Of a stretch of 64,000 nucleotides of DNA, positions 1 through 55,044 are shown piece by piece. Origin of the DNA: Apostichopus japonicus (Eukaryota > Echinodermata > Holothuroidea > Aspidochirotida > Stichopodidae); assembly GCF_037975245.1 (NCBI RefSeq), contig NC_092571.1, forward strand, positions 21,563,917-21,627,916, in the 5' to 3' direction. Numbering within the stretch: position 1 is the stretch's first letter; each line of letters opens with the position of its first letter. The notes under the pieces are model-generated. The model saw only the letters and a program-made list of their open reading frames with translations. It did no database searches and was not told the DNA's origin. The translations under genes and the position numbers were made by a program.

Positions 1-1584
1 CACTGTGCGAGCTGATGATCGAGACTCTCTTTTGCATCCGTGGTTCGAACCCCGGGTGATGACGTCTTTTGCCGATCTTTTACAGCAAGTGCCTACACGG
101 GGAGCTGTAAGTATTAGTTAATCCACCTAATATCTCAGTCCATACAGTGGCGCGATGGCTTGGCGCACTGTGCGAGCTGATGATCGAGACTCTCTTTTGC
201 ATCCGTGGTTCGAACCCCTGGTGATGACGTCTTTTACAGCAAGTGCCTACACGGGGAGCTGTAAGTATTAGTTAATCCACCTAATATCTCAGTCCATACA
301 GTGGCGCGATGGCTTGGCGCACTGTGCGAGCTGATGATCGAGACTCTCTTTTGCATCCGTGGTTCGAACCCCGGGTGATGACGTCTTTTACAGCAAGTGC
401 CTACACGGGGAGCTGTAAGTATTAGTTAATCCACCTAATATCTCAGTCCATACAGTGGCGTGATGGCTTGGCGCACTGTGCGAGCTGATGATCGAGACTC
501 TCTTTTGCATCCGTGGTTCGAACCCCGGGTGATGACGTCTTTTGCCGATCTTTTACAGCAAGTGCCTACACGGGGAGCTGTAAGTATTAGTTAATCCACC
601 TAATATCTCAGTCCATACAGTGGCGCGATGGCTTGGCGCACTGTGCGAGCTGATGATCGAGACTCTCTTTTGCATCCGTGGTTCGAACCCCGGGTGATGA
701 CGTCTTTTACAGCAAGTGCCTACACGGGGAGCTGTAAGTATTAGTTAATCCACCTAATATCTCAGTCCATACAGTGGCGTGATGGCTTGGCGCACTGTGC
801 GAGCTGATGATCGAGACTCTCTTTTGCATCCGTGGTTCGAACCCCGGGTGATGACGTCTTTTGCCGATCTTTTACAGCAAGTGCCTACACGGGGAGCTGT
901 AAGTATTAGTTAATCCACCTAATATCTCAGTCCATACAGTGGCGCGATGGCTTGGCGCACTGTGCGAGCTGATGATCGAGACTCTCTTTTGCATCCGTGG
1001 TTCGAACCCCGGGTGATGACGTCTTTTACAGCAAGTGCCTACACGGGGAGCTGTAAGTATTAGTTAATCCACCTAATATCTCAGTCCATACAGTGGCGCG
1101 ATGGCTTGGCGCACTGTGCGAGCTGATGATCGAGACTCTCTTTTGCATCCGTGGTTCGAACCCCGGGTGATGACGTCTTTTGCCGATCTTTTACAGCAAG
1201 TGCCTACACGGGGAGCTGTAAGTATTAGTTAATCCACCTAATATCTCAGTCCATACAGTGGCGCGATGGCTTGGCGCACTGTGCGAGCTGATGATCGAGA
1301 CTCTCTTTTGCATCCGTGGTTCGAACCCCGGGTGATGACGTCTTTTACAGCAAGTGCCTACACGGGGAGCTGTAAGTATTAGTTAATCCACCTAATATCT
1401 CAGTCCATACAGTGGCGCGATGGCTTGGCGCACTGTGCGAGCTGATGATCGAGACTCTCTTTTGCATCCGTGGTTCGAACCCCGGGTGATGACGTCTTTT
1501 ACAGCAAGTGCCTACACGGGGAGCTGTAAGTATTAGTTAATCCACCTAATATCTCAGTCCATACAGTGGCGTGATGGCTTGGCG

Positions 1585-4230
1585 CACTGTGCGAGCTGAT
1601 GATCGAGACTCTCTTTTGCATCCGTGGTTCGAACCCCGGGTGATGACGTCTTTTGCCGATCTTTTACAGCAAGTGCCTACAGTGGCGCGATGGCTTGGCG
1701 CACTGTGCGAGCTGATGATCGAGACTCTCTTTTGCATCCGTGGTTCGAACCCCGGGTGATGACGTCTTTTGCCGATCTTTTACAGCAAGTGCCTACACGG
1801 GGAGCTGTAAGTATTAGTTAATCCACCTAATATCTCAGTCCATACAGTGGCGCGATGGCTTGGCGCACTGTGCGAGCTGATGATCGAGACTCTCTTTTGC
1901 ATCCGTGGTTCGAACCCCGGGTGATGACGTCTTTTACAGCAAGTGCCTACACGGGGAGCTGTAAGTATTAGTTAATCCACCTAATATCTCAGTCCATACA
2001 GTGGCGCGATGGCTTGGCGCACTGTGCGAGCTGATGATCGAGACTCTCTTTTGCATCCGTGGTTCGAACCCCGGGTGATGACGTCTTTTACAGCAAGTGC
2101 CTACACGGGGAGCTGTAAGTATTAGTTAATCCACCTAATATCTCAGTCCATACAGTGGCGTGATGGCTTGGCGCACTGTGCGAGCTGATGATCGAGACTC
2201 TCTTTTGCATCCGTGGTTCGAACCCCGGGTGATGACGTCTTTTGCCGATCTTTTACAGCAAGTGCCTACACGGGGAGCTGTAAGTATTAGTTAATCCACC
2301 TAATATCTCAGTCCATACAGTGGCGCGATGGCTTGGCGCACTGTGCGAGCTGATGATCGAGACTCTCTTTTGCATCCGTGGTTCGAACCCCGGGTGATGA
2401 CGTCTTTTACAGCAAGTGCCTACACGGGGAGCTGTAAGTATTAGTTAATCCACCTAATATCTCAGTCCATACAGTGGCGTGATGGCTTGGCGCACTGTGC
2501 GAGCTGATGATCGAGACTCTCTTTTGCATCCGTGGTTCGAACCCCGGGTGATGACGTCTTTTGCCGATCTTTTACAGCAAGTGCCTACACGGGGAGCTGT
2601 AAGTATTAGTTAATCCACCTAATATCTCAGTCCATACAGTGGCGCGATGGCTTGGCGCACTGTGCGAGCTGATGATCGAGACTCTCTTTTGCATCCGTGG
2701 TTCGAACCCCGGGTGATGACGTCTTTTACAGCAAGTGCCTACACGGGGAGCTGTAAGTATTAGTTAATCCACCTAATATCTCAGTCCATACAGTGGCGCG
2801 ATGGCTTGGCGCACTGTGCGAGCTGATGATCGAGACTCTCTTTTGCATCCGTGGTTCGAACCCCGGGTGATGACGTCTTTTACAGCAAGTGCCTACACGG
2901 GGAGCTGTAAGTATTAGTTAATCCACCTAATATCTCAGTCCATACAGTGGCGTGATGGCTTGGCGCACTGTGCGAGCTGATGATCGAGACTCTCTTTTGC
3001 ATCCGTGGTTCGAACCCCGGGTGATGACGTCTTTTGCCGATCTTTTACAGCAAGTGCCTACACGGGGAGCTGTAAGTATTAGTTAATCCACCTAATATCT
3101 CAGTCCATACAGTGGCGCGATGGCTTGGCGCACTGTGCGAGCTGATGATCGAGACTCTCTTTTGCATCCGTGGTTCGAACCCCGGGTGATGACGTCTTTT
3201 ACAGCAAGTGCCTACACGGGGAGCTGTAAGTATTAGTTAATCCACCTAATATCTCAGTCCATACAGTGGCGTGATGGCTTGGCGCACTGTGCGAGCTGAT
3301 GATCGAGACTCTCTTTTGCATCCGTGGTTCGAACCCCGGGTGATGACGTCTTTTGCCGATCTTTTACAGCAAGTGCCTACACGGGGAGCTGTAAGTATTA
3401 GTTAATCCACCTAATATCTCAGTCCATACAGTGGCGCGATGGCTTGGCGCACTGTGCGAGCTGATGATCGAGACTCTCTTTTGCATCCGTGGTTCGAACC
3501 CCGGGTGATGACGTCTTTTACAGCAAGTGCCTACACGGGGAGCTGTAAGTATTAGTTAATCCACCTAATATCTCAGTCCATACAGTGGCGCGATGGCTTG
3601 GCGCACTGTGCGAGCTGATGATCGAGACTCTCTTTTGCATCCGTGGTTCGAACCCCGGGTGATGACGTCTTTTACAGCAAGTGCCTACACGGGGAGCTGT
3701 AAGTATTAGTTAATCCACCTAATATCTCAGTCCATACAGTGGCGCGATGGCTTGGCGCACTGTGCGAGCTGATGATCGAGACTCTCTTTTGCATCCGTGG
3801 TTCGAACCCCGGGTGATGACGTCTTTTGCCGATCTTTTACAGCAAGTGCCTACACGGGGAGCTGTAAGTATTAGTTAATCCACCTAATATCTCAGTCCAT
3901 ACAGTGGCGCGATGGCTTGGCGCACTGTGCGAGCTGATGATCGAGACTCTCTTTTGCATCCGTGGTTCGAACCCCGGGTGATGACGTCTTTTACAGCAAG
4001 TGCCTACACGGGGAGCTGTAAGTATTAGTTAATCCACCTAATATCTCAGTCCATACAGTGGCGCGATGGCTTGGCGCACTGTGCGAGCTGATGATCGAGA
4101 CTCTCTTTTGCATCCGTGGTTCGAACCCCGGGTGATGACGTCTTTTACAGCAAGTGCCTACACGGGGAGCTGTAAGTATTAGTTAATCCACCTAATATCT
4201 CAGTCCATACAGTGGCGTGATGGCTTGGCG
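1585..4230 (+). repeat. Higher-order repeat, copy A (2646 bp)
   Basis: Begins with a 116 bp monomer (T) that lost 49 bp, so that gcctaca runs straight into gtggcgcgatgg. The order of 17 monomers is T-L-S-S-L-S-L-S-S-L-S-L-S-S-L-S-S, where L is 165 bp and S is 154 bp. The next T monomer opens copy B. Confidence 0.85.
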
Positions 4231-6557
4231 CACTGTGCGAGCTGATGATCGAGACTCTCTTTTGCATCCGTGGTTCGAACCCCGGGTGATGACGTCTTTT
4301 GCCGATCTTTTACAGCAAGTGCCTACAGTGGCGCGATGGCTTGGCGCACTGTGCGAGCTGATGATCGAGACTCTCTTTTGCATCCGTGGTTCGAACCCCG
4401 GGTGATGACGTCTTTTGCCGATCTTTTACAGCAAGTGCCTACACGGGGAGCTGTAAGTATTAGTTAATCCACCTAATATCTCAGTCCATACAGTGGCGCG
4501 ATGGCTTGGCGCACTGTGCGAGCTGATGATCGAGACTCTCTTTTGCATCCGTGGTTCGAACCCCGGGTGATGACGTCTTTTACAGCAAGTGCCTACACGG
4601 GGAGCTGTAAGTATTAGTTAATCCACCTAATATCTCAGTCCATACAGTGGCGCGATGGCTTGGCGCACTGTGCGAGCTGATGATCGAGACTCTCTTTTGC
4701 ATCCGTGGTTCGAACCCCGGGTGATGACGTCTTTTACAGCAAGTGCCTACACGGGGAGCTGTAAGTATTAGTTAATCCACCTAATATCTCAGTCCATACA
4801 GTGGCGTGATGGCTTGGCGCACTGTGCGAGCTGATGATCGAGACTCTCTTTTGCATCCGTGGTTCGAACCCCGGGTGATGACGTCTTTTGCCGATCTTTT
4901 ACAGCAAGTGCCTACACGGGGAGCTGTAAGTATTAGTTAATCCACCTAATATCTCAGTCCATACAGTGGCGCGATGGCTTGGCGCACTGTGCGAGCTGAT
5001 GATCGAGACTCTCTTTTGCATCCGTGGTTCGAACCCCGGGTGATGACGTCTTTTACAGCAAGTGCCTACACGGGGAGCTGTAAGTATTAGTTAATCCACC
5101 TAATATCTCAGTCCATACAGTGGCGCGATGGCTTGGCGCACTGTGCGAGCTGATGATCGAGACTCTCTTTTGCATCCGTGGTTCGAACCCCGGGTGATGA
5201 CGTCTTTTACAGCAAGTGCCTACACGGGGAGCTGTAAGTATTAGTTAATCCACCTAATATCTCAGTCCATACAGTGGCGTGATGGCTTGGCGCACTGTGC
5301 GAGCTGATGATCGAGACTCTCTTTTGCATCCGTGGTTCGAACCCCGGGTGATGACGTCTTTTGCCGATCTTTTACAGCAAGTGCCTACACGGGGAGCTGT
5401 AAGTATTAGTTAATCCACCTAATATCTCAGTCCATACAGTGGCGCGATGGCTTGGCGCACTGTGCGAGCTGATGATCGAGACTCTCTTTTGCATCCGTGG
5501 TTCGAACCCCGGGTGATGACGTCTTTTACAGCAAGTGCCTACACGGGGAGCTGTAAGTATTAGTTAATCCACCTAATATCTCAGTCCATACAGTGGCGTG
5601 ATGGCTTGGCGCACTGTGCGAGCTGATGATCGAGACTCTCTTTTGCATCCGTGGTTCGAACCCCGGGTGATGACGTCTTTTGCCGATCTTTTACAGCAAG
5701 TGCCTACACGGGGAGCTGTAAGTATTAGTTAATCCACCTAATATCTCAGTCCATACAGTGGCGCGATGGCTTGGCGCACTGTGCGAGCTGATGATCGAGA
5801 CTCTCTTTTGCATCCGTGGTTCGAACCCCGGGTGATGACGTCTTTTACAGCAAGTGCCTACACGGGGAGCTGTAAGTATTAGTTAATCCACCTAATATCT
5901 CAGTCCATACAGTGGCGCGATGGCTTGGCGCACTGTGCGAGCTGATGATCGAGACTCTCTTTTGCATCCGTGGTTCGAACCCCGGGTGATGACGTCTTTT
6001 ACAGCAAGTGCCTACACGGGGAGCTGTAAGTATTAGTTAATCCACCTAATATCTCAGTCCATACAGTGGCGCGATGGCTTGGCGCACTGTGCGAGCTGAT
6101 GATCGAGACTCTCTTTTGCATCCGTGGTTCGAACCCCGGGTGATGACGTCTTTTGCCGATCTTTTACAGCAAGTGCCTACACGGGGAGCTGTAAGTATTA
6201 GTTAATCCACCTAATATCTCAGTCCATACAGTGGCGCGATGGCTTGGCGCACTGTGCGAGCTGATGATCGAGACTCTCTTTTGCATCCGTGGTTCGAACC
6301 CCGGGTGATGACGTCTTTTACAGCAAGTGCCTACACGGGGAGCTGTAAGTATTAGTTAATCCACCTAATATCTCAGTCCATACAGTGGCGCGATGGCTTG
6401 GCGCACTGTGCGAGCTGATGATCGAGACTCTCTTTTGCATCCGTGGTTCGAACCCCGGGTGATGACGTCTTTTACAGCAAGTGCCTACACGGGGAGCTGT
6501 AAGTATTAGTTAATCCACCTAATATCTCAGTCCATACAGTGGCGTGATGGCTTGGCG
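4231..6557 (+). repeat. Higher-order repeat, copy B (2327 bp)
   Basis: Fifteen monomers, T-L-S-S-L-S-S-L-S-L-S-S-L-S-S. It differs from copy A by 319 bp, exactly one L plus one S monomer. A third block opens with the T monomer at 6558-6673 and runs to the array edge at 9000 without meeting another T. Confidence 0.85.
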
Positions 6558-9000
6558 CACTGTGCGAGCTGATGATCGAGACTCTCTTTTGCATCCGTGG
6601 TTCGAACCCCGGGTGATGACGTCTTTTGCCGATCTTTTACAGCAAGTGCCTACAGTGGCGCGATGGCTTGGCGCACTGTGCGAGCTGATGATCGAGACTC
6701 TCTTTTGCATCCGTGGTTCGAACCCCGGGTGATGACGTCTTTTGCCGATCTTTTACAGCAAGTGCCTACACGGGGAGCTGTAAGTATTAGTTAATCCACC
6801 TAATATCTCAGTCCATACAGTGGCGCGATGGCTTGGCGCACTGTGCGAGCTGATGATCGAGACTCTCTTTTGCATCCGTGGTTCGAACCCCGGGTGATGA
6901 CGTCTTTTACAGCAAGTGCCTACACGGGGAGCTGTAAGTATTAGTTAATCCACCTAATATCTCAGTCCATACAGTGGCGCGATGGCTTGGCGCACTGTGC
7001 GAGCTGATGATCGAGACTCTCTTTTGCATCCGTGGTTCGAACCCCGGGTGATGACGTCTTTTACAGCAAGTGCCTACACGGGGAGCTGTAAGTATTAGTT
7101 AATCCACCTAATATCTCAGTCCATACAGTGGCGTGATGGCTTGGCGCACTGTGCGAGCTGATGATCGAGACTCTCTTTTGCATCCGTGGTTCGAACCCCG
7201 GGTGATGACGTCTTTTGCCGATCTTTTACAGCAAGTGCCTACACGGGGAGCTGTAAGTATTAGTTAATCCACCTAATATCTCAGTCCATACAGTGGCGCG
7301 ATGGCTTGGCGCACTGTGCGAGCTGATGATCGAGACTCTCTTTTGCATCCGTGGTTCGAACCCCGGGTGATGACGTCTTTTACAGCAAGTGCCTACACGG
7401 GGAGCTGTAAGTATTAGTTAATCCACCTAATATCTCAGTCCATACAGTGGCGTGATGGCTTGGCGCACTGTGCGAGCTGATGATCGAGACTCTCTTTTGC
7501 ATCCGTGGTTCGAACCCCGGGTGATGACGTCTTTTGCCGATCTTTTACAGCAAGTGCCTACACGGGGAGCTGTAAGTATTAGTTAATCCACCTAATATCT
7601 CAGTCCATACAGTGGCGCGATGGCTTGGCGCACTGTGCGAGCTGATGATCGAGACTCTCTTTTGCATCCGTGGTTCGAACCCCGGGTGATGACGTCTTTT
7701 ACAGCAAGTGCCTACACGGGGAGCTGTAAGTATTAGTTAATCCACCTAATATCTCAGTCCATACAGTGGCGCGATGGCTTGGCGCACTGTGCGAGCTGAT
7801 GATCGAGACTCTCTTTTGCATCCGTGGTTCGAACCCCGGGTGATGACGTCTTTTACAGCAAGTGCCTACACGGGGAGCTGTAAGTATTAGTTAATCCACC
7901 TAATATCTCAGTCCATACAGTGGCGTGATGGCTTGGCGCACTGTGCGAGCTGATGATCGAGACTCTCTTTTGCATCCGTGGTTCGAACCCCGGGTGATGA
8001 CGTCTTTTGCCGATCTTTTACAGCAAGTGCCTACACGGGGAGCTGTAAGTATTAGTTAATCCACCTAATATCTCAGTCCATACAGTGGCGCGATGGCTTG
8101 GCGCACTGTGCGAGCTGATGATCGAGACTCTCTTTTGCATCCGTGGTTCGAACCCCGGGTGATGACGTCTTTTACAGCAAGTGCCTACACGGGGAGCTGT
8201 AAGTATTAGTTAATCCACCTAATATCTCAGTCCATACAGTGGCGTGATGGCTTGGCGCACTGTGCGAGCTGATGATCGAGACTCTCTTTTGCATCCGTGG
8301 TTCGAACCCCGGGTGATGACGTCTTTTGCCGATCTTTTACAGCAAGTGCCTACACGGGGAGCTGTAAGTATTAGTTAATCCACCTAATATCTCAGTCCAT
8401 ACAGTGGCGCGATGGCTTGGCGCACTGTGCGAGCTGATGATCGAGACTCTCTTTTGCATCCGTGGTTCGAACCCCGGGTGATGACGTCTTTTACAGCAAG
8501 TGCCTACACGGGGAGCTGTAAGTATTAGTTAATCCACCTAATATCTCAGTCCATACAGTGGCGCGATGGCTTGGCGCACTGTGCGAGCTGATGATCGAGA
8601 CTCTCTTTTGCATCCGTGGTTCGAACCCCGGGTGATGACGTCTTTTGCCGATCTTTTACAGCAAGTGCCTACACGGGGAGCTGTAAGTATTAGTTAATCC
8701 ACCTAATATCTCAGTCCATACAGTGGCGCGATGGCTTGGCGCACTGTGCGAGCTGATGATCGAGACTCTCTTTTGCATCCGTGGTTCGAACCCCGGGTGA
8801 TGACGTCTTTTACAGCAAGTGCCTACACGGGGAGCTGTAAGTATTAGTTAATCCACCTAATATCTCAGTCCATACAGTGGCGCGATGGCTTGGCGCACTG
8901 TGCGAGCTGATGATCGAGACTCTCTTTTGCATCCGTGGTTCGAACCCCGGGTGATGACGTCTTTTGCCGATCTTTTACAGCAAGTGCCTACACGGGGAGC

Positions 9001-9555
9001 TTAATCGGCCTTATATCTCAGTTTCAGTCAAATTATATTCGACGACATAGTGAATTATCATAAAAATTCCAGCCCTTTAGGCGTTCCATAGGAAACGATT
9101 TGACAAGTCTATGTTCCTATGGTAGTATACGCCCAGTCATGTGGTCTCTAAGTCTAGATAGAAGTTTTCACTAGCTAAACGCTACCCATCACCGCATAGC
9201 TGACAAGTTGGCCTTCCATGGCACTATCAATTTCCGTATCATGACCATGTAGATTTTTTGCTTTCCGAGCCGGAACTTTCCGTCACTTGTAAACAGACCT
9301 CTTCACTCATTGGTAAACAAATTTCCTACGCTGCTCCTGAGAGGCCTAAAGGGGTCGAAAATTTCCTCAATTGACCCACTTTTCTCACCATATGTACTTC
9401 CATTGATGCTTTTCAACATGCAAGCCATAAAAACTAGATTATGATTGATAACAGGTCACAAAAGATGTTCTCCCGCTGCTTTTTGGCACTTTTCCTGAAG
9501 GCGAACAATCGGGCGGATTGATATAGACTCTAATAAGAGTAAGCCACCATAACGC
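9001..9555. other. Unique sequence at the satellite edge
   Basis: The array stops in mid-monomer at cggggagc (9000) and is followed by apparently unique sequence. I see no gene, splice-bounded ORF or repeat here. Confidence 0.6.
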
Positions 9556-30685: not shown

Positions 30686-31471
30686 TCGACGGAGATATTT
30701 TGTGTAAAGCTAAGAAGTTTGCTGATGACACTAAATTGTATTCTGAGGTCTCTTCCAAAAGCTATTATGAGAAGTTTCAAATGGATTTGGATCAGGTTTT
30801 TTCCTGGTCTCAAGGGTGGCAAATGCTTTTTAATATTGATAAATGTAAGGTGTTAGGTATGATCAAGAGGAACTTCAGTTTTCTGAAAGAGGACATCGTA
30901 GTTAGGCTTTATAAGCAGTTGGTTAGGCCTCATCTGGAGTATGCTGTGCAGGCTTGGAACCCATATTTTGCTAAGGATAAGGAAGTACTTGAAAATGTCC
31001 AGAAGAGGGCTACTAGGATGATTAGTTCCTTAAAGAGGGTTCCTTATTATAGGCGGTTACAACTGTTGAATCACACCACACTGGAGCTTAGGAGGTTACG
31101 TGGGGACTTGATCCAGGTTTTCAAGATTGTGTATGGTTTCGACAATTTATCCTTTACTGACTTTTTCATGTTGGCAAACAGTAGTTGTACAAGAGGTCAT
31201 TGTCTTAAACTTCAGAAGTCACATAGTAGGATTAATATTCGGCATAACTTTTTTTCTAATAGGGTTGTGAATGAGTGGAATAGTTTGCCTGAGAAAGTTG
31301 TACTTGCAAGTAGTGTCAATGGGTTTAAGAATGCTTTGGACAAGCACTTTAAGCATTGTAATCGGGTCTGAGTGTTTGTGTCTTCAGTTTTTTCCCTCTC
31401 TTTCTAGGGTCCTTGATGGGGACTTAAGTGTCCCTCCTGATCCTTTTTTCTACTAAACTAAACTAAACTAA
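30686..31471 (+). mobile_element. CR1-like LINE, truncated (copy 2)
   Basis: Same family as the OXSM intron 1 copy. It is open from 30655 to 31371 because an internal deletion of roughly 140 bp joins FNIDKCKV to LGMIKRNF in frame. It retains FADDTKLY and [16 protein letters not shown] and ends in the same TTTTTTCTA plus CTAAA tail. No endonuclease or 5' RT motifs are present, so it cannot be autonomous. Confidence 0.88.
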
Positions 31472-32474
31472 ATTTGAGGTTTTACACTCACACACTGCTG
31501 ATCCAGTTCCAAGCTATTCACTGTTAAAATATGCTAAACCTCCGATATGTTCCTTTAAAGGCTAACTTGATGATGTTATCAGCTCTTCTAGAACAGGCTT
31601 TAACGTTAATGTTAAGTTTTGTTAACCCATTGCTTTACATAAATTCTCACTCAACCAAAGCATGTTCCTTTAACTTGATATTAAAACAACAACACCCTTG
31701 CACCCATTGAAAGAAAATTAAACACCATCTATCCAAAAGTTGACAAATTTGTACTACCACTGTAAACATGTCATTTGAGACAGGTAAATATCTTTTTGTG
31801 ATTTTGTGCTGGATCTGAGGAACTCAGCTAAATGGATAAAGTATTAGACTAAATAGTCTTTTCACTCTAAACCGATGAACCTCGGCAAATTAATGGGTCG
31901 TTCCCGTACAAATTAAAAGTGGCATAAAAAATCTAGCCTGGTCTGATAGCACTGTTTTCCAACCATTCACAACAAATTAACTGAGGTTTGTTAAACTTTG
32001 TTTCTAAAATCATCTTTTTTATGAATTTTTCCTTCATGTCTTTCCATTGTAATATAGCTTGTAAACCTATTGCAATCAAAAACTTTTACATTTTTTTTTA
32101 CATTTTATAATAATATTCTGTAACTACTGTAGTTGATACAACAATACTAGACATTTCACTAGTAGATGGGTTATAAATAATAATAATAAAAAAAAATTGA
32201 CATTTCTGACATTACATAAGTTAGGGAAATCATTAAATGTTCTTAGATCTCTGTCTGTGGCTCTGACTCCCTCCCACCAAGAAAGTGTTAATCCCCCACC
32301 CCCTCCTATCACCAAAAGCAATCCGTTTTCGCCCTTAAAATTACTGGCTATCGTTGACTCATTCGAGTCTTCAAATGTAACATGCATGATCTACACTTTA
32401 TGCAGAGTTCTTACGTCTACATGGCTTGTGTATTCCTATCTAGTAATTTTCTTTCATACTCTTTTTATGGACAG
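31472..32474. other. Gene-poor stretch before the isolated exon
   Basis: A run of AAT and A at 32175-32197 and a pyrimidine-rich tract near 32440-32470 that suits a splice acceptor. If the 32475 exon belongs to a multi-exon + gene, upstream exons could be here, but I could not define one. Confidence 0.4.
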
Positions 32475-32668
32475 AACCACCTATGGTGTCCACCATGGAA
32501 CAGCTCACCGAGAGACCTCCAGAAGACTTAAATTTGGAAGAGACTTGGGAAGATGACGAAACATCAGACAGAGACAATAAATTGGAATCCCAAGCCCCTG
32601 TAGCCGATTCAGAGCCATACTCTAGTCTCATTATGGACATGAAAGCCTCCATCTCACCTCCGAGTTAA
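32475..32668 (+). CDS. Probable terminal exon of an unidentified protein
   Basis: A pyrimidine-rich tract and ATGGACAG form a convincing acceptor at 32474. The frame then stays open for 64 codons to TAA at 32666-32668. The peptide is acidic and polar, with PPEDLNLEETWEDDETSD in its middle and MDMKASISPPS at the end, which suits a disordered C-terminus or cytoplasmic tail. I do not recognise the family. No upstream exon was found, so it may be an exon with distant partners, a stray pseudogene exon or a chance ORF with coding-like composition. An ATG at 32483 lies close to the acceptor, so a single-exon reading is possible but less likely. Confidence 0.4.
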
Positions 32669-32800
32669 GTACAGTCTAACTCTTACCAGATCAGGAAAGG
32701 CTTACCAGACGATAACCTCCTGAAGGCAGAAGAAGACAGAAAAGTTTGTTCCAATTCTGGTAGCGACGTGCCGAACGCTTCATCGATCCAAAATGACAAG

Positions 32801-32928
<128 letters not shown>

Positions 32929-33358
32929 AATTGTACAATTGTGCTATGAAACCAACTGTGGCTGGTCTGGAACTCGACCGAGTCATCGGGAACACGATGC
33001 GTTTCGGTATTAGACCAGGATCTATATGATCCGTAACTCATACAATGAATCTAAAAATAAATTCCGCATGTGATTGGAGAATTGAGCACATCTCCTGTGA
33101 ATATCATGTAGTACGTGGGGGGGGGGCAGGCGGATGCACCTATCACTTCTTGAGATTGTTCCAATCTGCGTGAAAATGCCCCACCACCCACCCCCCACAA
33201 CCCCTACGCCCCACCCCTCTTATCACTTCCCGATGGGTTACAAAACTTAAACAATAACCTTCGCCCGTAGTACCAAAACCTTGACAAAATCCGGCAACAC
33301 ACCACTTCATCGATAGATAACGAGTCTAGTGATCGGGCTGTGTATTAGTGATGCTAGA

Positions 33359-34573
33359 GGTCGTGCATATGGCAAGCCCTTTAACATTTACCTCGCAATT
33401 AGACTTAAGTCGAATACATTTCACTTAAGTGGAATACATTCTACTTAAGTGAAATGTTATTCCACTTAAGTAAAATGTATTCCACTTAAGTGGAATTCAA
33501 TATCCCTTCAGTAGAATTCCATTTCTCTTAAGTGGAAATGGACATTTCTATTTCACTTAAGTGGATATGCCTCCCACTTAAGTGGAATTGTATTTCACTT
33601 TAGTGGAAATGCATTCCACTTAAGTGGAATTGTATTTCACTTAAGTGGAATACATTTCCACTTAAGTGGAATACATTTCCACTTAAGCTAAATAGCCCAT
33701 CTATTTCACTTAAGTGGAACACAATTCCACTTTAGTGGAATGCATTTCCACTTAAGTGGAATTGTATTCCACTGAAGTGGAATACAATTTCACTTAAGTG
33801 GAATAATATCTTTTGCTCGTCAATTTCACTTAAGTGGAATTCTATTCTGCCAAAGTAAAATACAATTCCACTTAAGTGGAAGTGTTGATATGTGGCTTAT
33901 ATATAAATACAATTTAGGGTAATGTTCGGTAATGTTATTTTGGTAATGGTATTCATCTGGTACCAGGTCAGGTATGTACGTACTCACCTTGCACGGATGT
34001 TAAGTGCTAGCTGGATCCCGATGGACAGCCGATATTCATTGTGCACATATCGACACCACGTTTCGCGGCAAGTTGTTTATAATGGCGCGCAAAGGCATGG
34101 GCAAAGTTTGGCGTTGAATGTACTAGCCAATCACATTCCACTTAAGTGGAATAGACTAGCCAATCACATTCCACTTAAGTGAAATAGACTATCCAATCAC
34201 ATTTCACTTAAGTGGAATTGTATTCCACTTAAGTGAAATAGAAAGGAAATTCCACTTAAGTGGAATTGTATCCACTTAAGTAGAATACAATTCCACTTAA
34301 GTGAAATGCATTTCCACTTAAGTGAAATACAATCCCCTTAAGTGAAATAGATTAAGCTTAAGTAAGATGCAGTGACAAGTTGATGAATTCAGCTTAAGTA
34401 AAATACAATTAAGCTTAAGTGGAATGGTATTCCACTTAAATGAAATAGAATTCCACGTAAGTTAAATAGTATTCTGCTTAAGTGATATTGAATTCCACTT
34501 AAGTGAAATGTATTCGACTTAAGTCGAATTGCGAGGTAAATGTTAAAACGGCTTGCCATACGTGCACTGACCT
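33359..34573. mobile_element. 1.2 kb TIR element made of phased CTTAAG palindromes
   Basis: The outer arms are inverted copies of each other. The left arm contains atggcaagcc, then aacatttacctcgcaatt, then gacttaagtcgaatacattt; the right arm (34505-34573) is its reverse complement with a few differences. Between them are two arrays (33404-33885 and 34128-34520) of the 16 bp palindrome ttccacttaagtggaa and variants, about 30 CTTAAG cores by hand count. Cores in the left array start at 33404, 33424, 33444, 33465, 33485 and so on, mostly 20-21 bp apart. A roughly 240 bp non-palindromic centre (33890-34125) separates the arrays and is followed by a short tandem actagccaatcac unit. No coding capacity is seen, and no clear target duplication (a TA pair at each edge is possible). 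Confidence 0.8.
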
Positions 34574-34924
34574 AAATGGAGTGTAACCACTCCCGATTTT
34601 GCAATTTCCCAAGATCAGGCCCGAAAAATCCCAAGACATTCCAAGAACACTGTGCTGTATGGATTTCTAGCAATATCCAGCGATAGGGATGAATATCCCA
34701 AGATCTTACCTAAACTGAAGGCAGATAGAGAATCGAAACCTTCAGTGTACTGAACTTGAAACTGCGTCTTTCGAAATGAAAAGAATGTCGGGAATTGCAC
34801 AATAAACAAATCAAAGTTATTTATTTCAGTCTCATTTCAATTATTCGAATTTGTTAAGCAAACAGCAGATATCACATCATATAAGTGAGCATGAAAATGG
34901 CGTTCCAGGATGAACAGCCTCTAA

Positions 34925-35110
34925 ACCATGGGCGCAGATCCTGGTGCGGACAGCGGGACGCGTCCCCATCAACTTTTTCAGTAGTGGGGACATGATATAC
35001 CGTGTCCCCACCAATTTGTCTTGACCAATAGCTGCATTTCAAGTTCCCCTGTATTGAACCTTGGCGCAGTTAGATCCAGCCCAGCCCCCGGTTCCTACGC
35101 CCTTGCTAAC
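34925..35110. repeat. Possible dispersed repeat
   Basis: Reads gggcgcagatcc, gtggggacatgatata, ccccaccaatttg and cctacgcccttgc. The style and some words match interspersed repeats of marine invertebrates and the fragment at 14315-14405. The class is unknown. Confidence 0.3.
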
Positions 35111-35144
35111 CACTGCGTCACTGCAACTGTTGAGAAATAATGCT

Positions 35145-35710
35145 ATTTTTTTCCTTCAAAATGGAACGGAGGGAGATGTTCAAAATGCTGTACTTGTAAA
35201 CAGGATAACTCAACACGTTCACCTTTATTGAACTTCATATTTCAAATGGTCTTAAAATTGGCATTATTTTCAGTGATTAATACTACATGACTTTAGGTTT
35301 GGCAGTGACTTGTGAAAATGTTTCATAGTGAAAATAAAACAATGTCATGTAACTCATTAATTATTAAAGGGGTGGCAGAGCTGCTTTTCTTGCTTAAATT
35401 GATCAAAGAATATGTCCATGTGCTCATACATAGAGCATCTGTATGTCTTTATTTCACATAGGAAGACTGTTCTCTCTGGGTATTGAAACATTTTGGAATA
35501 TAAATTCTACATTTTTGAGTCCTTAAAAGATCTTAATTCTTTTGATTGCCTTGTTGCTAAAGTAATGGTCAAGGCAACGTTTCCTGAATCTGCATAGCTC
35601 ATGTCGCGGAGCGGTTGAAAACTATTAATATACAACAACCAGTTAAAACAACAGTATCAGGCAGTATTTTATCACCCTCCGTTCCATTTTTGAAGAAAAA
35701 ATTACGATTA
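35145..35710. repeat. Inverted repeat pair, about 30 bp arms
   Basis: The left arm has ccttcaaaatggaacggagg and the right arm (35676-35710) its inverse, ctccgttccatttttgaag, about 500 bp apart. It may be an eroded fold-back element. No flanking duplication was found. Confidence 0.45.
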
Positions 35711-35789
35711 AAACATTGAACACTTCTATCGCTTAGCATACAATTTCCGAGGAAACAACACCGTGAAACTGGAGAACATTTATGAATAA

Positions 35790-35960
35790 GAATGGTTTGA
35801 TTTGACTGCTTTGAAATAACGTATGACTGGCAAGATGCGTCGAGCGCTCTCTATCGGCCTCGTTTTTGGTCAGTTTGCAACTTCAGAGGAACAATAGAAA
35901 CCCGAAAAAACTTTTAAAACGAACAAAGGATTCACAAACCTTTGTTCTGCCTAAAAGATA
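35790..35960. repeat. Dispersed repeat with terminal hairpin, copy 1
   Basis: Matches 38377-38548: ggtttgatttgactgctttg, ctggcaagatgcgtcgagc, then cagtttgcaacttcagagga followed by acaatag and a hairpin (cttttaaaacgaacaaagg against cctttgttctgcctaaaag). In this copy the frame that is open at 38.4 kb has stops. Confidence 0.65.
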
Positions 35961-36084
35961 AGCAGAATGAAAATAAAATAAAACTGTTAGCAAACTGCTT
36001 ATCCACTAGAGAGCCTGTGCAATAGAATGTGTAAAAGTTTCGATCCTAGCAGGATCTTCTTCAGAGGCTAAGAAAATAAGATAA

Positions 36085-37440
36085 GCAGAAAGTTTGGTTT
36101 ATTGTAGATTTGTGTGCGCGGAATTAGCCCGATTGATACGGGAAAGGTGATTAATTTGCTCTAGGTGGGTTATGGTGCGGTTATCTATAATTCTTTCGAA
36201 AATCTTACCTAAGGCTGGGAGGAGACTAACTGGTCGATAGTTTTGAATTTTGGTGCGGTCTTTACTTAGTTTCGGTATTAAAATCTTTTTGGCGGATTTC
36301 CATGGGGTTCGGAAATAACCCAGTGTAAGGAGTTCGTCAAATAGTGGGAAAATATGAGAGTTATGAATATCGGAGGGGAGTTTTTAGGCATTTGGTCATT
36401 TATGTTGTCAGGACCAGTGGAGGATGCATGTTTTAGTGGCACTATACCAATTGTTTATATCTATTTTATTGAGCAGAGGGATGTTTTTGTTGAGACATCC
36501 TAATGGGTTGGTGTTAAAGCTGGTTGCATTACTGATAATTGTACGGTCTATTTCGTGTTTACAGCTGATATCGTATGGGGGCCATCGTAGATATTGAATA
36601 TACTTTTAAAGTACGATTCAATTAGCTTTATTTGGTCTTGAGTTTTTGTGATGAGGTTACCTACGTTATCTCTAAGGCCTTGGTCTGTTTTACCTGTGTT
36701 TGGTGTTGTAATGGGGTTAATAATTTTTTTTTTAAAGTTTCCAAAAGTGTTTCGGGTTTTTATCATTAATGATGAAATCGCAGTTGTTTTGGACGCGGTT
36801 GTTCATCCGCCAATATTTGTCTGTTTATTGCTATTTAAGTTGGTTAATTTGGGTTTTTAGAGTTGGGTCTCGGGAGATGATATAAGTTCTACGTAGGCGA
36901 CGTCTGAGTTTCATAAGTGTAAGAATATTCTTATTTAGTTTTCGTTTTCTGTTTTGTTTTTAAGGGACAGTGTCTTTTGAAAGTATAGAAAATATGATGG
37001 GCAACGCTGTCACAGTAATTGTCGATGTAATTTAGCTCGTTGTTTTGGTTGTTGTATTTTGGGAGTCTGTTTTATTGTAGTTATACGTCAATTCGTTTTT
37101 TGGTACGCAGTTGAGGTTTATGTCTAGCTCAAAAACGAGTGGAAAATGGTCACTGATTTAGTCATCTTCTAGGATTTGTATCGAATGTGTTTTAGTTGCG
37201 AGGTGATTTGAGGTTATATGGGTAGTCAAGTAGTTCTGTAATATTGTTTATTGGGTTCATCCTAGGTTTGGTATTTTGGTTAATTATCGTTAAGTTGTAT
37301 TTATCACATATTTCTAAGAGAGACTTGCCTTTTTCAGAAAAAAATAATGTGGTGGGCATTTACTAGGAGTTTTTTTATTTTTTATTAGAACATTTTTTTT
37401 ATTATATCGGTGGATATGGGCTCATTTGGGGGACTATAAT
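36085..37440 (-). mobile_element. Jockey-like LINE fragment (same family as 44.7-52.6 kb)
   Basis: Read on the minus strand it matches about 46075-47490 of the longer copy: the linker and N-terminal RT part of ORF2 and the end of the endonuclease. Shared plus-strand words include ggtttattgtagatttgtgt, tttcgaaaatcttacctaag and atgtctagctcaaaaa. It is truncated at both ends and carries many frame breaks. Confidence 0.85.
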
Positions 37441-37544
37441 CATACCACGAAAGTGTCCATTAGCTATAGGTTGCATTGAGGGTGTGTTATTCTTGCGTCA
37501 AATGGCGTACCATGGAAGGGGGAGGGGGGGTTGGGTGGTCTATC

Positions 37545-37920
37545 TGGCAGTGGCGGAGCGTCCATACAGTCAGGGGGCGGATGCCCCCCTGACGGACTCA
37601 AATGGACTGCTGGCGCCCTTTTCAGCTTTATACCACTTTTTATTTATATGCGATTATTGACGTTTTTAATGCGCTCTCATCTACCTATTGACATTTGTCA
37701 CATTTTTTTTGGCGATGACACCTATTTATTCTTCATTTATCTGCATATTAGCAAGGCCCGGAAAGGGTCATTTCCGGCGATCTAGGGAGCATCTTTATTC
37801 AAAAATTTCTCTACGCTCCGCGCCAACCCGTGGTGGCGCTCCGCTTAGATAGTGTCGAAAGCGCCCCTACAGACCATCCTCGCCCCCCTCGACCAATACC
37901 CCTATAGCTCCGATACTGCA
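37545..37920. repeat. Dispersed repeat, copy 2 (longer)
   Basis: Opens with agtggcggagcgtccatac, followed by cagggggcggatgccccc, and runs to the block shared with 14725-14912 (ggtggcgctccgcttagatag). It is probably a mobile element end or non-autonomous element of unknown class. Confidence 0.6.
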
Positions 37921-38147
37921 GAAGACCCGATAGAAATACGTATTCTTTATAAGTGCACAATTTTGAAAAACCCCTCTTTTCAGCCCCCTCTCATGTCCTC
38001 TCTGAAACACCCATCAACATTGAAATAAGACGTGGAGTAGAAGACACCCTTGTCTTTGTTATACACAAATTTCGTGTAATTATCTGACCGGGAAAGTCTT
38101 GTTGTTTATAGGCCTATGATTTCTACAGTTTTTCATAAATCATATAT

Positions 38148-38708
38148 CAGGTTTTTTTGCCCCCCCACCCGCACGCCCCCACACAACACCCAATTCCAAA
38201 ATAAACTTCAGATTCGTAATCAGCGTGTCGCGAACTACCAGAAAAGATACACATTGATCGCCTTTGCGACAAAAAGTTTTTTCACCTAAAAAAACCGTAA
38301 GGGGTACGTACCTCTTGCAGTTTTTTGCCAAAATTGACCCATTTATTCATAAATGTCAAGATAAAACTCAAGATGACAAACAAAGGTTTGATTTGACTGC
38401 TTTGAAATCACGTATCACTGGCAAGATGCGTCGAGCACCCTCTTATGACACTTATTTCGCTCAGTTTGCAACTTCAGAGGAACAATAGAAAACCGAAAAA
38501 CTTTTAGGGACAACAAAAGGTTTTATAACCTTTGTTCGTCGTAAAAGTTTTTCGGTCTTACTTTTCTTTGAGGTGAAAAAAAAAATTGTCGCAAAAGCGA
38601 TAAATGTGTATCTTTTCTGGTAGTTCGCGACATGCTGATTACGAATCTGAAGTTTATTTTGGAATTAGGTGCTGTGTTGGGCGTGGGGGCAAAAAACCTG
38701 ATTTGCAG
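38148..38708. mobile_element. Fold-back element with roughly 150 bp inverted arms
   Basis: The arms 38148-38301 and 38555-38708 are inverted copies. Words shared after complementing include ttccaaaataaacttcag, gattcgtaatcagc and gcgaactaccagaaaagata. The roughly 250 bp centre holds the repeat also found at 35790-35960 and a second, nested palindrome (38490-38560) with a stem of about 30 bp around ccgaaaaacttttagg. The plus ORF 38264-38488 ends in FAQFATSEEQ just before this inner hairpin, but the homologous copy has stops, so I do not call it coding. Confidence 0.65.
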
Positions 38709-39519
38709 TTTTGCCAAAACTGACCAAAAATCGATCCACAATCGATTTCGCCCAAATGGCGTAACAGGGGGTAACCGATGCTCAGGAGCCCAAATTTGCA
38801 ACTCCCAGGTCCATATCTGCTTCCGTGCGGGAGATACGTGGTCCCAAAGGAATCTGCATAGCCCTCCAAAAGATTTTATTGATAAGATCCAAAGTACTAT
38901 TTTTGATTTATTTCGAACGGGAAAACTGATAAAGTAAGGAAAATTACTATGTATAACCCCATTGAAAAGGGGGGTTTAAAAAAATGTATGTTCACAGCTT
39001 TGTTGGTGCTCTCAAAACCTATTGGGCCAAGCGTTATTGTAATAATGCCAACACGGGGTATTGGAAGCTCTTTTATTTCATTCCTCTCTGTCGCCGTCCG
39101 GTAAAGAGTTGCTTTTTAATTATAATTTTCATGACCAGGATATTTCCTGTATTTAAAAATACCTTCATTGGACAAATTTGTATGGTTTTGAGTAAGCTTA
39201 GCTACCTTTAAGAAACCATCGGAAATTGGGTGTGCAAATCCCTAATAATTTTATTAGAATTGATAATACCATTGTTTATGACAAAAAGCTTTTACGACGC
39301 CGGTTTACTGTTTGTTAGGGATATGTTTTTGCTAGATGGGAAGCAATTGTCCAAATATTGCTTTTCTGACCAGTCTTCTACATTGTTAAGCTATTGTATG
39401 CTTTATAGAAGACTTCCTTTCACATTGTATATTTGCACGTGAAAAAACAAAATAAATCAAATCAAATAACTAATAATTATTTCTAAACAGTTACGGTGGT
39501 TAGTGTTATGTACTTAGAA
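38709..39519. other. Gene-poor stretch
   Basis: AT-rich. Short ORFs at 38984-39211 and 39230-39442 show no recognisable domain. Nothing else is supported. Confidence 0.5.
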
Positions 39520-40730
39520 AGTAAGACAAACTCTCTGTCTAGAATTCAACTCCCAGAGGATGTATTGTTTTGGTATTTCTTTTCCTCATTTTGCAGCTAA
39601 AATATTAGAAAAGCCTATCATTTCTCAATTAACAGATACTGTGGCAAAGTTGTTATGTTGTATAATTTTGCATATTTATTATTGTTTTGTACAATGAAAT
39701 TGTCAATAAACTGAAAAAATGAGACATACTCCTTGTCTTGAATTCAAACACCAGAGGATGCATTTGATTTTCTATTTATTTGCCTTCTAATGTTGTGAAG
39801 ATTAAATATTAGAAACGAGTATTCAATCTCAACAGTTCTAGTGGCGCAGTTGGTAGTGCTCTGGACTGGAGAGACAGACAAACTCCATGTCTCCGGTTCG
39901 AACCCCAGACAGCATTTTATATTTTTGCTCTTTTACTGACTCCATTCTGGACTTTGAAGTTTAAATATTAGAAACGAGCATTAATTCTCAACAGTTCTAG
40001 TGGCGCAGTTGGTAGTGCTCTGGACTGGAGAGACAGACAAACTCCATGTCTCCGGTTCGAACCCCAGACAGAGCATTTTATATTTTGCTCTTTTACTGAT
40101 TTCATTCTGGACTATGAAGTTTAAATATTAGAAACGAGCATTAATTCTCAGCAGTTCTAGTGGCGCAGTTGGTAGTGCTCTGGACTGGAGAGACAGACAA
40201 ACTCCATGTCTCCGGTTCGACCCCCAGACAGAGCATTTTATATTTTTGCTCTTTTACTGACTCCATTCTGGACTTTGAAGTTTAAATATTAGAAACAAGC
40301 ATTAATTCTCAACAGTTCTAGTGGCGCAGTTGGTAGTGCTCTGGACTGGAGAGACAGACAAACTCAATGTCTCCGGTTCGACCCCCAGACAGAGCATTTT
40401 ATATTTTTGCTCTTTTACTGACTCCATTCTGGACTTTGAAGTTTAAATATTAGAAACAAGCATTAATTCTCAACAGTTCTAGTGGTGCAGTTGGTAGTGC
40501 TCTGGACTGGAGAGACAGACAAACTCCATGTCTCCGGTTCGAACCCCAGACAGAGCATTTTATATTTTTGCTCTTTTACTGATTCTATTCTGGACTCTGA
40601 AGTTTAAATATTAGAAACGAGCATTAATTCTCAACAGTTCTAGTGGCGCAGTTGGTAGTGCTCTGGACTGGAGAGACAGACAAACTCCATGTCTCTGGTT
40701 CGATTCCCAGACAGAGCATCATGTCTGCGG
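39520..40730 (+). repeat. Tandem array of tRNA-like units (about 160 bp)
   Basis: Six clear units have gtggcgcagttggtagtgct starting at 39841, 40000, 40160, 40321, 40482 and 40643. Two decayed units precede them from about 39520. Each has an A box (TGGCGCAGTTGG), a D-stem that pairs (GCGC with GTGC), a B box GGTTCGAACCC and a following T-run (cattttatattttt). Five acceptor-like pairs (GTTCT with AGAGC) survive, but the T stem and anticodon stem are poor, so I call these tRNA-derived repeats and not tRNA genes. They are unrelated in sequence to the 0-9 kb satellite. Confidence 0.8.
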
Positions 40731-40821
40731 TTCATGTCCAGACAGAGCCTTTTACTTTTCTACCCTCTGGAGGGAGTGGAAGTATAAATATAAGAAACGA
40801 AGTTTCTCCAGAGGGAACCGA

Positions 40822-40895
40822 AATGGTGTAATTGGTTATTCCATCGTTCAGTAAGCGATTGGTTTGGATTGCATCGGTTCAAGTCCCAGGTGAGT
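40822..40895 (+). repeat. tRNA-like relic
   Basis: An A-box-like TGGTGTAATTGGTTA is followed by a B box GGTTCAAGTCCC. The stems are not convincing. It lies directly after the tRNA-like array. Confidence 0.45.
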
Positions 40896-40899
40896 ATTT

Positions 40900-41137
40900 G
40901 CAAAAGGAGTTCTGACAAATGGATGAGGTGAATCCCGAAGGTGGGCAGCCCCTCCTCCTGACAGGTGGGTAAGGTGAGTACCAAGGTGAGAGGGGGTGAA
41001 GGTGTGGACAAGGTGTGGACAAGGTGAGGTCGCCGCCCCCTCTCCCTGACAAGGTAAAGGCGCGGACAAGTGGAGCTCGCCGCCACCCCCCCCATGACAA
41101 GGTTCACTCGCGGACAAGTGGAGTTCGCCGCCACCCC
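40900..41137. repeat. GC-rich degenerate repeats
   Basis: Repeated gacaaggt, gcggacaagtggag and cgccgccaccc words in two or three imperfect copies. The Pro/His/Ser-rich minus ORFs here come from this composition and resemble no known protein. Confidence 0.5.
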
Positions 41138-53989: not shown

Positions 53990-54952
53990 CCTCACTAAAT
54001 ACCAACTCGTTCCATCAAACTAGGTACAATGTCTTATTAATTTTAGACAACCAAAATACTTATTACAAATTCATTCCAACAAACTAAGGCAACAGGTTTC
54101 ATTAATTTAGCACAAAACAGACCACACTAATTAGCAACTCATATCAATAAACTAAGGCAGAACTTATCAATTTAATACAAACACACCACACCAATTACCG
54201 ACTGGTTCCAATAGGCTAAGGCCGAGGTCTTATACATTTAGCACAAAAATGTCTCCTACATTTCTAATTAAAAACTAATACCAATAAACTTAGGCACCAT
54301 GTCTCAATAATTTAGCACAAAAACAGACTACATTAATTAGCATCTCATGCCAATACACTAAGAAACCAATTAGCTTCATTTTGATGTTGTCATGGTTGCT
54401 TGGAATGAGTGGAATGTGTCACTCTGTACAAACTATATCATGGAACTTGTTCAGCCTTTCTGTAAGAATAGTAGTTTAGCACAAAAAAACAACATCAAAT
54501 ACCGACTGGTTCCAACAGGCTAAGGCACCATGTCTCATACATTTAGCACAAAAACAAGAACACACCAAATACCCACTGGTTCCAACAGGCTAAGGCACTG
54601 TGTCTCGTACACTTAGCACAAAAACAGACAACACCAAATACCGACTGGTTCCAACAGGCTAAGGCACTGTGTCTCGTACATTTAGCACAAAAACTGACCA
54701 CACCAAATACCAACTTGTTCCAACAGGCTAAGGCACCGTGTCTCGTACATTTAGCACAAAAACTGACCACACCAAATACCAACTGGTTCCAACAGGCTAA
54801 GGCACCGTGTCTGATACAATTAGCACAAAAACACACCACACCAATTACCTTTTTCAATAGGCTAAGGCACTGTGTCTTGTACAGTTAGCACAAAAACAGA
54901 CCACACCAAATACCGACTGGTTCCAACAAGCTAAGGCACCGTGTCTCGTACA
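53990..54952. repeat. 69 bp minisatellite between ABCC exon copies
   Basis: Units of 69-70 bp begin aaataccgactggttccaac at 54497, 54567, 54636 and 54705, with more degenerate units on both sides. Because 69 is a multiple of 3, the minus strand has an open frame of 23-residue repeats (CAKCTRHGALACWN); I regard it as non-coding. Confidence 0.85.
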
Positions 54953-55044
54953 TTTAGAAATGATCTTGACAACAATCAACTGTTGAGAGGACAAGACTGA
55001 TGTTCATGATACTGGCTCACACTGATGTTTTCCTTGAATCTTAC

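What the first reader, a model, noticed from the sequence alone, without database searches (positions are those of the whole stretch)
33359..34573. Element built of about 30 CTTAAG palindromes phased at two helical turns
Seen: inverted termini enclose two arrays of the palindrome ttccacttaagtggaa and variants. Cores in the left array step 20-21 bp (33404, 33424, 33444, 33465, 33485, then 33577, 33598, 33619, 33640, 33661, 33682), with one 29 bp step. Inferred: a 21 bp step puts every dyad on the same helix face, as expected for cooperative binding of a dimeric protein (transposase, or a homeodomain-like factor given the TTAAGTG half-site) or for cruciform formation. Several variants change both half-sites together, which hints at selection or gene conversion. 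I know of no described element of this form.
Basis: partly seen in the sequence, partly recalled or inferred. Interest (0 to 1): 0.82.

Follow-up and report, generated by a model that had tools for sequence, protein, structure and literature searches.

The report
Mobile element with palindrome-studded ends
The stretch is a non-coding jumping-DNA element, cut down from the same kind of large transposon that carries a cutting-and-pasting enzyme and a ubiquitin-ligase-like gene, and its two ends are paved with dozens of evenly spaced copies of one palindrome that probably serve as docking sites for the enzyme.

Summary
Observation confirmed. The element is 33368-34560, with ends TATGGCAAGCC/GGCTTGCCATA, 6-bp target duplication CGTGCA, and 32 CTTAAG cores where 0.4 are expected. 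The terminus matches 525 times genome-wide, 0 in the control. Of 31 simple loci with other flanks, 27 have a perfect 6-bp duplication; the target consensus is YGNNCR; an empty-site paralogue exists. Arms usually hold 17-23 cores in 20-21 bp steps, with off-steps in the same order in two subfamilies; the core is 93-100% conserved between them, the rest 68-75%. A 22.7-kb TSD-bounded partner carries such arrays at both ends, an integrase-core (rva_4) transposase and a convergent HECT ubiquitin-ligase-like gene. Termini and TSD fit IS3EU/GingerRoot. Genome-wide, 33 of 58 HECT loci lie within 15 kb of an rva_4 locus, all 33 convergent. Best reading: a non-autonomous IS3EU-type transposon whose arrays dock its transposase. 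Identity is strong; docking is inferred. Whole-arm single-face phasing and a host NK2-factor role are not supported. New variant of a known kind.

The parts
33362..33367 (.). left copy of 6-bp target-site duplication CGTGCA
   Evidence: the empty-site paralogue L013 has one copy
33368..33378 (+). left terminal inverted repeat TATGGCAAGCC (followed by CTTTAACATTTACCTCGCAATT)
   Evidence: ends agree with copies in other flanks
33400..33879 (.). left (transposase-side) array: 17 exact CTTAAG palindrome cores plus variants
33902..33909 (+). TATAAATA, position of a TATA box for the transposase-side gene remnant (motif recalled)
   Evidence: in fuller copies it lies about 90 bp upstream of the MATANHSHL... 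reading frame
33928..33935 (.). junction of an internal deletion (about 360 bp of fuller copy L024 missing, including the first-exon remnant)
34064..34095 (-). remnant of the opposite (HECT-side) promoter region: ACTTGCCGCG, TTATAA, TTTGCGCGCC (E2F-like; recalled motif)
34122..34218 (.). three 33-bp units each with a CCAAT box and one palindrome
34133..34529 (.). right (HECT-side) array: 15 exact CTTAAG cores plus variants
34550..34560 (-). right terminal inverted repeat GGCTTGCCATA
34561..34566 (.). right copy of target-site duplication CGTGCA
31471..41000 (.). pieces of a larger dispersed repeat into which an ancestor of this copy had inserted; the whole is itself copied (L001-L008, L023-L028)

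Best explanation
It is a non-autonomous, internally deleted DNA transposon of the IS3EU/GingerRoot kind. Its relatives include a giant (22.7 kb) element with a transposase gene at one end and a convergent HECT ubiquitin-ligase-like gene at the other. Each end is a short inverted repeat followed by a 0.4-0.5 kb arm of usually 17-23 CTTAAG palindromes, directly outside one of the two promoter regions. Most likely mechanism: the element's own transposase (or an element-encoded partner) binds the palindromes as dimers, each site about two helical turns from the next. The loaded arms are drawn together for cutting at TATGG and joining into YGNNCR targets, giving 6-bp duplications. Because the arms flank both promoter regions, occupancy would also tune expression of both genes. 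Shown: the element, its mobility (TSDs, empty-site paralogue), its kinship with the large two-gene element, and conservation of core and spacing. Inferred: what binds the palindromes, the synapsis and autoregulation roles, and the role of the HECT gene.
For: Dispersed copies: 525 end matches, 0 in the reversed control. TSDs: of 31 simple loci, 27 perfect, 3 with one mismatch (L016, L021, L044) and 1 (L039) without; among the 33 fetched loci one pair shares over 200 bp of flank. Target consensus: G at position 2 in 29 of 31 and C at position 5 in 25 of 31 distinct TSDs. Empty-site paralogue. Partner: C1 ends 22,667 bp apart with the same TSD CGGCCG, arrays at both ends (21 and 17 cores), rva_4 transposase exons, HECT gene inside and convergent. 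B-type small element L036 matches both arms of the large element at 89% over 529 and 534 bp. Core CTTAAG 93-100% identical between A and B arms against 68-75% elsewhere, with the same order of off-steps in representative arms. IS3EU features TA..TA / TAYGG..CCRTA and 6-bp TSD: passages of PMC10045372 and PMC12730594.
Against: No binding data exist. A DNA-binding domain in the transposase was not identified: the first-exon remnant matches no Pfam family above cut-off. The partner found is B-type; no A-type element with a transposase was located, and the window copy is A-type. Two other long TSD-matched end pairs (C13 and C17, 16.2 and 16.7 kb) have no listed rva_4 or HECT match inside. That PF24764 equals the IS3EU transposase is from recall, not a tree. 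Array cores could be conserved through amplification of a favoured unit rather than through binding, and conservation was measured on alignments that themselves follow the cores.
Confidence: 0.72

Rival explanations
1. The arrays are binding sites for a host factor (for example an NK2-type homeodomain protein, TTAAGTGG) and act as a hired enhancer or silencer for the transposon genes, not as transposase sites.
For: AAGTG half-sites are 75% of half-sites in subfamily A; the arrays lie just outside both promoter regions, next to CCAAT, E2F-like and TATA motifs.
Against: Subfamily B keeps the CTTAAG core and the spacing but only 21% AAGTG half-sites. Dozens of sites at two-turn steps at both ends, next to the cut sites, is more than promoter control would seem to need.
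Confidence: 0.15
2. Neutral minisatellite growth: a palindromic unit was amplified in the arms by slippage and carried along without function.
For: The number of exact cores varies between arms (13 to 37 in 70 arms, 57 of them 17-23) and individual units differ; tandem arrays within transposons are common (recalled).
Against: The same ordered off-steps (29 or 36/37, then 27, then 33 or 36/26) recur in representative arms of A and B; the core is better kept than flanks; arrays sit at both ends of the large, coding element as well.
Confidence: 0.12
3. A foldback or cruciform element that moves through secondary structure of its palindromes.
For: Long inverted arms rich in palindromes.
Against: Precise 6-bp TSDs and YGNNCR target preference, an empty-site paralogue and an integrase-core transposase in the partner point to ordinary cut-and-paste.
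Confidence: 0.03

Closest known systems
IS3EU / GingerRoot DNA transposons
   Same: TA..TA termini, specifically TAYGG..CCRTA; 6-bp TSD (passages of PMC10045372 and PMC12730594); integrase-core transposase in the partner; two genes in opposite orientation, as in the fungal TET-bearing families.
   Different: Companion gene is a HECT ubiquitin-ligase-like gene; the alpha-kinase of the fungal TET-bearing families matches only one place in this genome, on C19. Arms made of usually 17-23 palindromes at 20-21 bp steps; the passages I read do not mention such arrays. Length 22.7 kb.
Galileo / Foldback elements (P superfamily)
   Same: Long inverted ends that are internally repetitive (abstract start of PMC3573991 in the listing).
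   Different: P-type transposase and TSD length (recalled) differ from the rva_4 transposase and 6-bp TSD here; the repeat unit here is a palindrome.
hAT and other elements with subterminal transposase sites (Ac/Ds, Hermes)
   Same: Subterminal sequences bound by the transposase (Hermes BED domains on the left end: abstract start of PMC10368747 in the listing).
   Different: Unit, number of sites, termini, TSD and transposase class differ (hAT details recalled).

Membership tests
IS3EU/GingerRoot | termini TA..TA, in fungal families TAYGG..CCRTA | tested here: met
   TATGGCAAGCC..GGCTTGCCATA in the window and in copies with other flanks; definition in passages read
IS3EU/GingerRoot | 6-bp target-site duplication | tested here: met
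   27 of 31 simple loci perfect, 3 with one mismatch, 1 without
IS3EU/GingerRoot | integrase-like transposase encoded by a member with the same ends | tested here: met
   rva_4 PF24764, E 2.1e-75, inside the 22.7-kb element with the same terminal repeat, arrays and matching TSD; that element is B-type, the window copy A-type; the catalytic residues were not checked one by one
IS3EU/GingerRoot | transposase groups with IS3EU/GingerRoot rather than Ginger1/2 or IS481EU in a tree | not testable with these tools
   no Repbase transposases at hand; PF24764 = IS3EU is recalled
IS3EU/GingerRoot | no HHCC zinc motif upstream of the core | not tested
   the N-terminal exons were not all fetched
IS3EU, fungal TET-bearing families | alpha-kinase gene opposite the transposase | tested here: not met
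   PF02816 matches only on C19. This is a feature of the fungal TET-bearing families in PMC12730594, not of the superfamily; a HECT gene is there instead
P superfamily / Galileo | P-type transposase | tested here: not met
   the transposase exons read in the partner match only rva_4; the rest of the 22.7 kb was mostly not read
hAT6 | hAT transposase with 6-bp TSD | tested here: not met
   TSD length fits (hAT6 from a reference title), but the transposase exons read match only rva_4

The most novel reading that the evidence does not exclude
A lineage of giant IS3EU transposons that pairs its transposase with a HECT ubiquitin ligase and loads the transposase on about 40 palindromic sites per element. 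The arrays would act as a platform that counts bound dimers, coupling transposition and expression of both genes, while the ligase would remove a host or self protein (a repressor, or the transposase itself). Internal-deletion derivatives would then multiply because they keep the complete platform.
Probability: 0.3. Interest if true: 0.78.

Novelty: new variant of a known kind. Interest (0 to 1): 0.58.

Why it matters
It turns an odd array into a testable model: dozens of near-identical candidate binding sites of fixed geometry per element, in two subfamilies that keep the core and spacing but change the half-sites. That is a natural mutagenesis experiment on transposase-DNA recognition. It also shows that integrase-core (rva_4) transposase loci in this genome often travel with a convergent HECT ubiquitin-ligase-like gene (33 rva_4 loci, all 33 pairs convergent). 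I did not find this association in the listings of two literature searches (2 papers, 1 listed; 71 papers, 12 listed).

Tried and rejected
Whole-arm helical phasing: averaged over arms, coherence peaks at 10.15-10.2 bp (A 0.61, B 0.70 against shuffled 0.39 and 0.43). The arms are homologous, though, and four representative arms do not beat shuffles of their own steps (329, 359, 574 and 1644 of 2000 shuffles at least as high), so I do not claim it.

Co-changing half-sites: rejected.

Coding function of the array: 21-bp steps keep frames open and give heptad-like frames of up to 143 aa, but in several frames and on both strands; taken as a by-product.

Alpha-kinase companion as in fungal IS3EU: rejected. 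Pfam on the first-exon remnant: only sub-cut-off hits. Transposase core against solved structures: no match at E 0.1. Literature searches for subterminal palindromes and for IS3EU with HECT gave nothing direct in what was listed (15 of 19; 0 papers; 1 of 2; 12 of 71).

Errors of my own: the regex found nothing because of a wrong gap length; redone. In one search one of 15 copies (L013a) was probably wrongly oriented (best identity 0.66); I disregard that row. In some searches, L032 was counted as A though its ends look B-like, and a few A copies (window, L024, L027, L028) descend from one host insertion. Of the 48 TIR pairs (selected for at most one TSD mismatch), 13 were left out and in the arm counts (duplicates of the host insertion and the composite loci L011, L012), leaving 35. 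The 31 distinct TSDs include one from a mis-pairing in L011. In one search the looser end pattern mis-set the outer ends of L016; I take its duplication (one mismatch). L011 and L013 are clusters of copies and are not in the count of 31. A first, hand-collapsed HECT count (34 of 59) was replaced by a scripted one on all rows (33 of 58 with 10-kb merging, 33 of 64 with 3-kb merging).

Full report
WHAT IS THERE. The window lies in an unnamed 671.6-Mb assembly in 35 contigs (contig C11); I take it to be an animal, which is not tested. Comparison with copies in other surroundings fixes the ends at TATGGCAAGCC (33368) and GGCTTGCCATA (34560), so the element is 1193 bp, flanked by the 6-bp duplication CGTGCA.

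IT IS A MOBILE ELEMENT. The terminal 28-mer occurs 525 times (261 + 264) with up to two mismatches, and 0 times in the reversed control. That is of the order of 200 copies, since subfamily B elements often hold a third, internal match. I fetched 33 loci outside the host repeat (L009-L021 and L029-L048; L022, a duplicate of L021, left out). In these, one pair of loci (L013, L045) shares more than 200 bp of flank. Two loci (L011, L013) are clusters of copies and are not counted. Of the other 31, 27 have a perfect 6-bp target duplication, three have one mismatch (L016, L021, L044) and one (L039) has none at 6 bp. Among 31 distinct duplications, position 2 is G in 29 and position 5 is C in 25, giving a palindromic target YGNNCR. 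Locus L013 also holds a paralogue of the window's host repeat without the element: GAGGTCGTGCACTGACC, with a single CGTGCA. Nearest-neighbour identities among 14 of 15 aligned A copies are 0.947-0.992, so activity was fairly recent.

THE WINDOW COPY. It is a shortened member: about 360 bp of the middle, present in copy L024, is gone at 33928/33935, and with it the first-exon remnant. It also sits inside a larger dispersed repeat. Loci L001-L008 share the flanks (L007 with a deletion), so these copies spread with that repeat and do not count as separate insertions.

ANATOMY. Fuller copies (about 1.5-1.65 kb in A, near 1.9 kb in B) have two arms. In 70 arms of 35 copies, 57 hold 17-23 exact cores (range 13-37). 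Within arms the steps are mostly 20-21 bp (in A 773 of 1032 steps, in B 247 of 309). They are interrupted by off-steps in a recurring order: early in the arm 29 bp on one side and 36/37 bp on the other, then 27, then 33 or 36/26. Two subfamilies share this layout. A has TTCCACTTAAGTGGAA-like units and TTCGACTTAAGTCGAA outermost; B has TACTTAAGTA-like units and TTCTACTTAAGTAGAA outermost. Aligned A and B arms (copy L009 against the two arms of the large B element) are 93-100% identical in the core, 68-75% in the five bases on either side and 72-75% in spacers. AAGTG half-sites are 75% of 2172 in A (27 copies) and 21% of 650 in B (8 copies). What is conserved is therefore core and spacing, not the half-site that would suit an NK2 homeodomain (motif recalled).

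PROMOTERS AND GENE REMNANTS. Just inside one arm lies TATAAATA, followed about 90 bp on in 30 of 43 places by a frame beginning like MATANHSHLTLLECDQIIVVV; it stays open for at least 70 codons in 15 of the 30 (places not all independent). Just inside the other arm lie three 33-bp units with CCAAT boxes, an E2F-like TTTGCGCGCC and a TATAAA-like motif (motif names recalled).

THE CODING PARTNER. A scan for the integrase-core family PF24764 (rva_4) gave 143 matches (150 of 224 candidates scored). One of them (C1:12277550-12278077, minus strand) lies about 5.5 kb from an exact terminal repeat. That end has a B-type arm with 21 cores and the flank CGGCCG. Predicting that the other end would carry the same duplication, I searched CGGCCGTATGGCAAGCC: 22 matches genome-wide, one of them at C1:12260964 in the right orientation, which makes an element of 22,667 bp. 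It has a B-type arm with 17 cores. The small B element L036 matches the two arms of this large element at 89% over 529 and 534 bp, and its middle matches sequence just inside the left arm at 87% over 354 bp, so it looks like a deletion derivative of such an element. The transposase exon scores E 2.1e-75 to rva_4. A frame near the right end (MAGASSSSVLSGLQCDQIL) resembles the A remnant by eye only. Most of the 22.7 kb was not read.

THE SECOND GENE. A HECT search (96 rows) hit C1:12274712-12274975 on the plus strand, inside the element and convergent with the transposase. A 347-aa open stretch there matches HECT at E 1.2e-11 and solved HUWE1 chains at 1.1e-9, with TCANLIQCPVF opposite HUWE1's TCFNQLDLPAY, so the likely catalytic cysteine is present (its position recalled). 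Merging all rows by script, 33 of 58 HECT loci lie within 15 kb of one of 82 rva_4 loci, all 33 convergent and none otherwise placed (10-kb merging; 33 of 64 and 87 with 3-kb merging). Uniform chance would give about 0.2; 11 of the 33 are on C17, where rva_4 matches cluster (59 of 143 rows), so that figure is rough. Alpha-kinase, the companion in fungal TET-bearing IS3EU elements, was found only at one place on C19. Against a simple picture, two other long TSD-matched pairs (C13, 16.2 kb; C17, 16.7 kb) contain no listed rva_4 or HECT match.

CLASSIFICATION. Passages of PMC10045372 state that complete IS3EU families have TA..TA termini and usually 6-bp TSDs, and that IS3EU and GingerRoot form one lineage. 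A passage of PMC12730594 gives TAYGG..CCRTA ends for fungal IS3EU. The element fits these. That PF24764 is the IS3EU transposase is my recollection; no tree could be made here.

MECHANISM. Most likely the palindromes are dimer-binding sites for the transposase (or an element-encoded helper), spaced about two turns apart, which load both arms for synapsis and sit where they can also govern both promoter regions. I put the element's identity at about 0.93 and the docking role at about 0.65. The idea that all sites share one helix face is weaker than it looks: mean coherence peaks at 10.15-10.2 bp, but single arms do not beat shuffles of their own steps.

NOVELTY. A new variant of a known kind. 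The distinctive features are the palindrome-built arms and the HECT companion. The listings showed neither; the held library lacks most subscription journals, and I could not see Repbase reports.

Noticed in passing
genome-wide (coordinates): Integrase-core transposase (rva_4) loci are often paired with a convergent HECT ubiquitin-ligase-like gene: 33 of 58 HECT loci within 15 kb, all 33 convergent.
   Followed up: partly
window 1-9001: Tandem array of a 154-bp unit with a tRNA-like B box (GGTTCGAACCCC; recalled motif) and GC of about 0.51 against about 0.33-0.42 beyond 10 kb; ARAGORN finds no tRNA. Could be a satellite grown from a tRNA-derived repeat.
   Followed up: partly
window 39796-40719: Second tandem array, 161-bp unit, also with GGTTCGAACCCC, inside the larger repeat that carries the element.
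   Followed up: no
C13:16865501-16881707 and C17:7347690-7364428: Two further pairs of element ends with the same TSD CGGCCG, 16.2 and 16.7 kb apart; contents not read, no rva_4 or HECT match listed inside them.
   Followed up: partly
L036:1555 (also L034, L039, L041, L042): B-type small elements hold an internal second copy of the terminal repeat (such as TATGGCAAGCCGTTATAACATTTACC) next to sequence of the HECT-side first exon, perhaps a trace of a one-ended or aborted event.
   Followed up: partly
C17: rva_4 matches cluster on this contig: 59 of 143 rows.
   Followed up: no
window 54475-54957: 69-bp tandem array, about 7 copies.
   Followed up: no
L011 and L013: Clusters of element copies inserted into or beside each other, several pairs with their own perfect TSD.
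   Followed up: no
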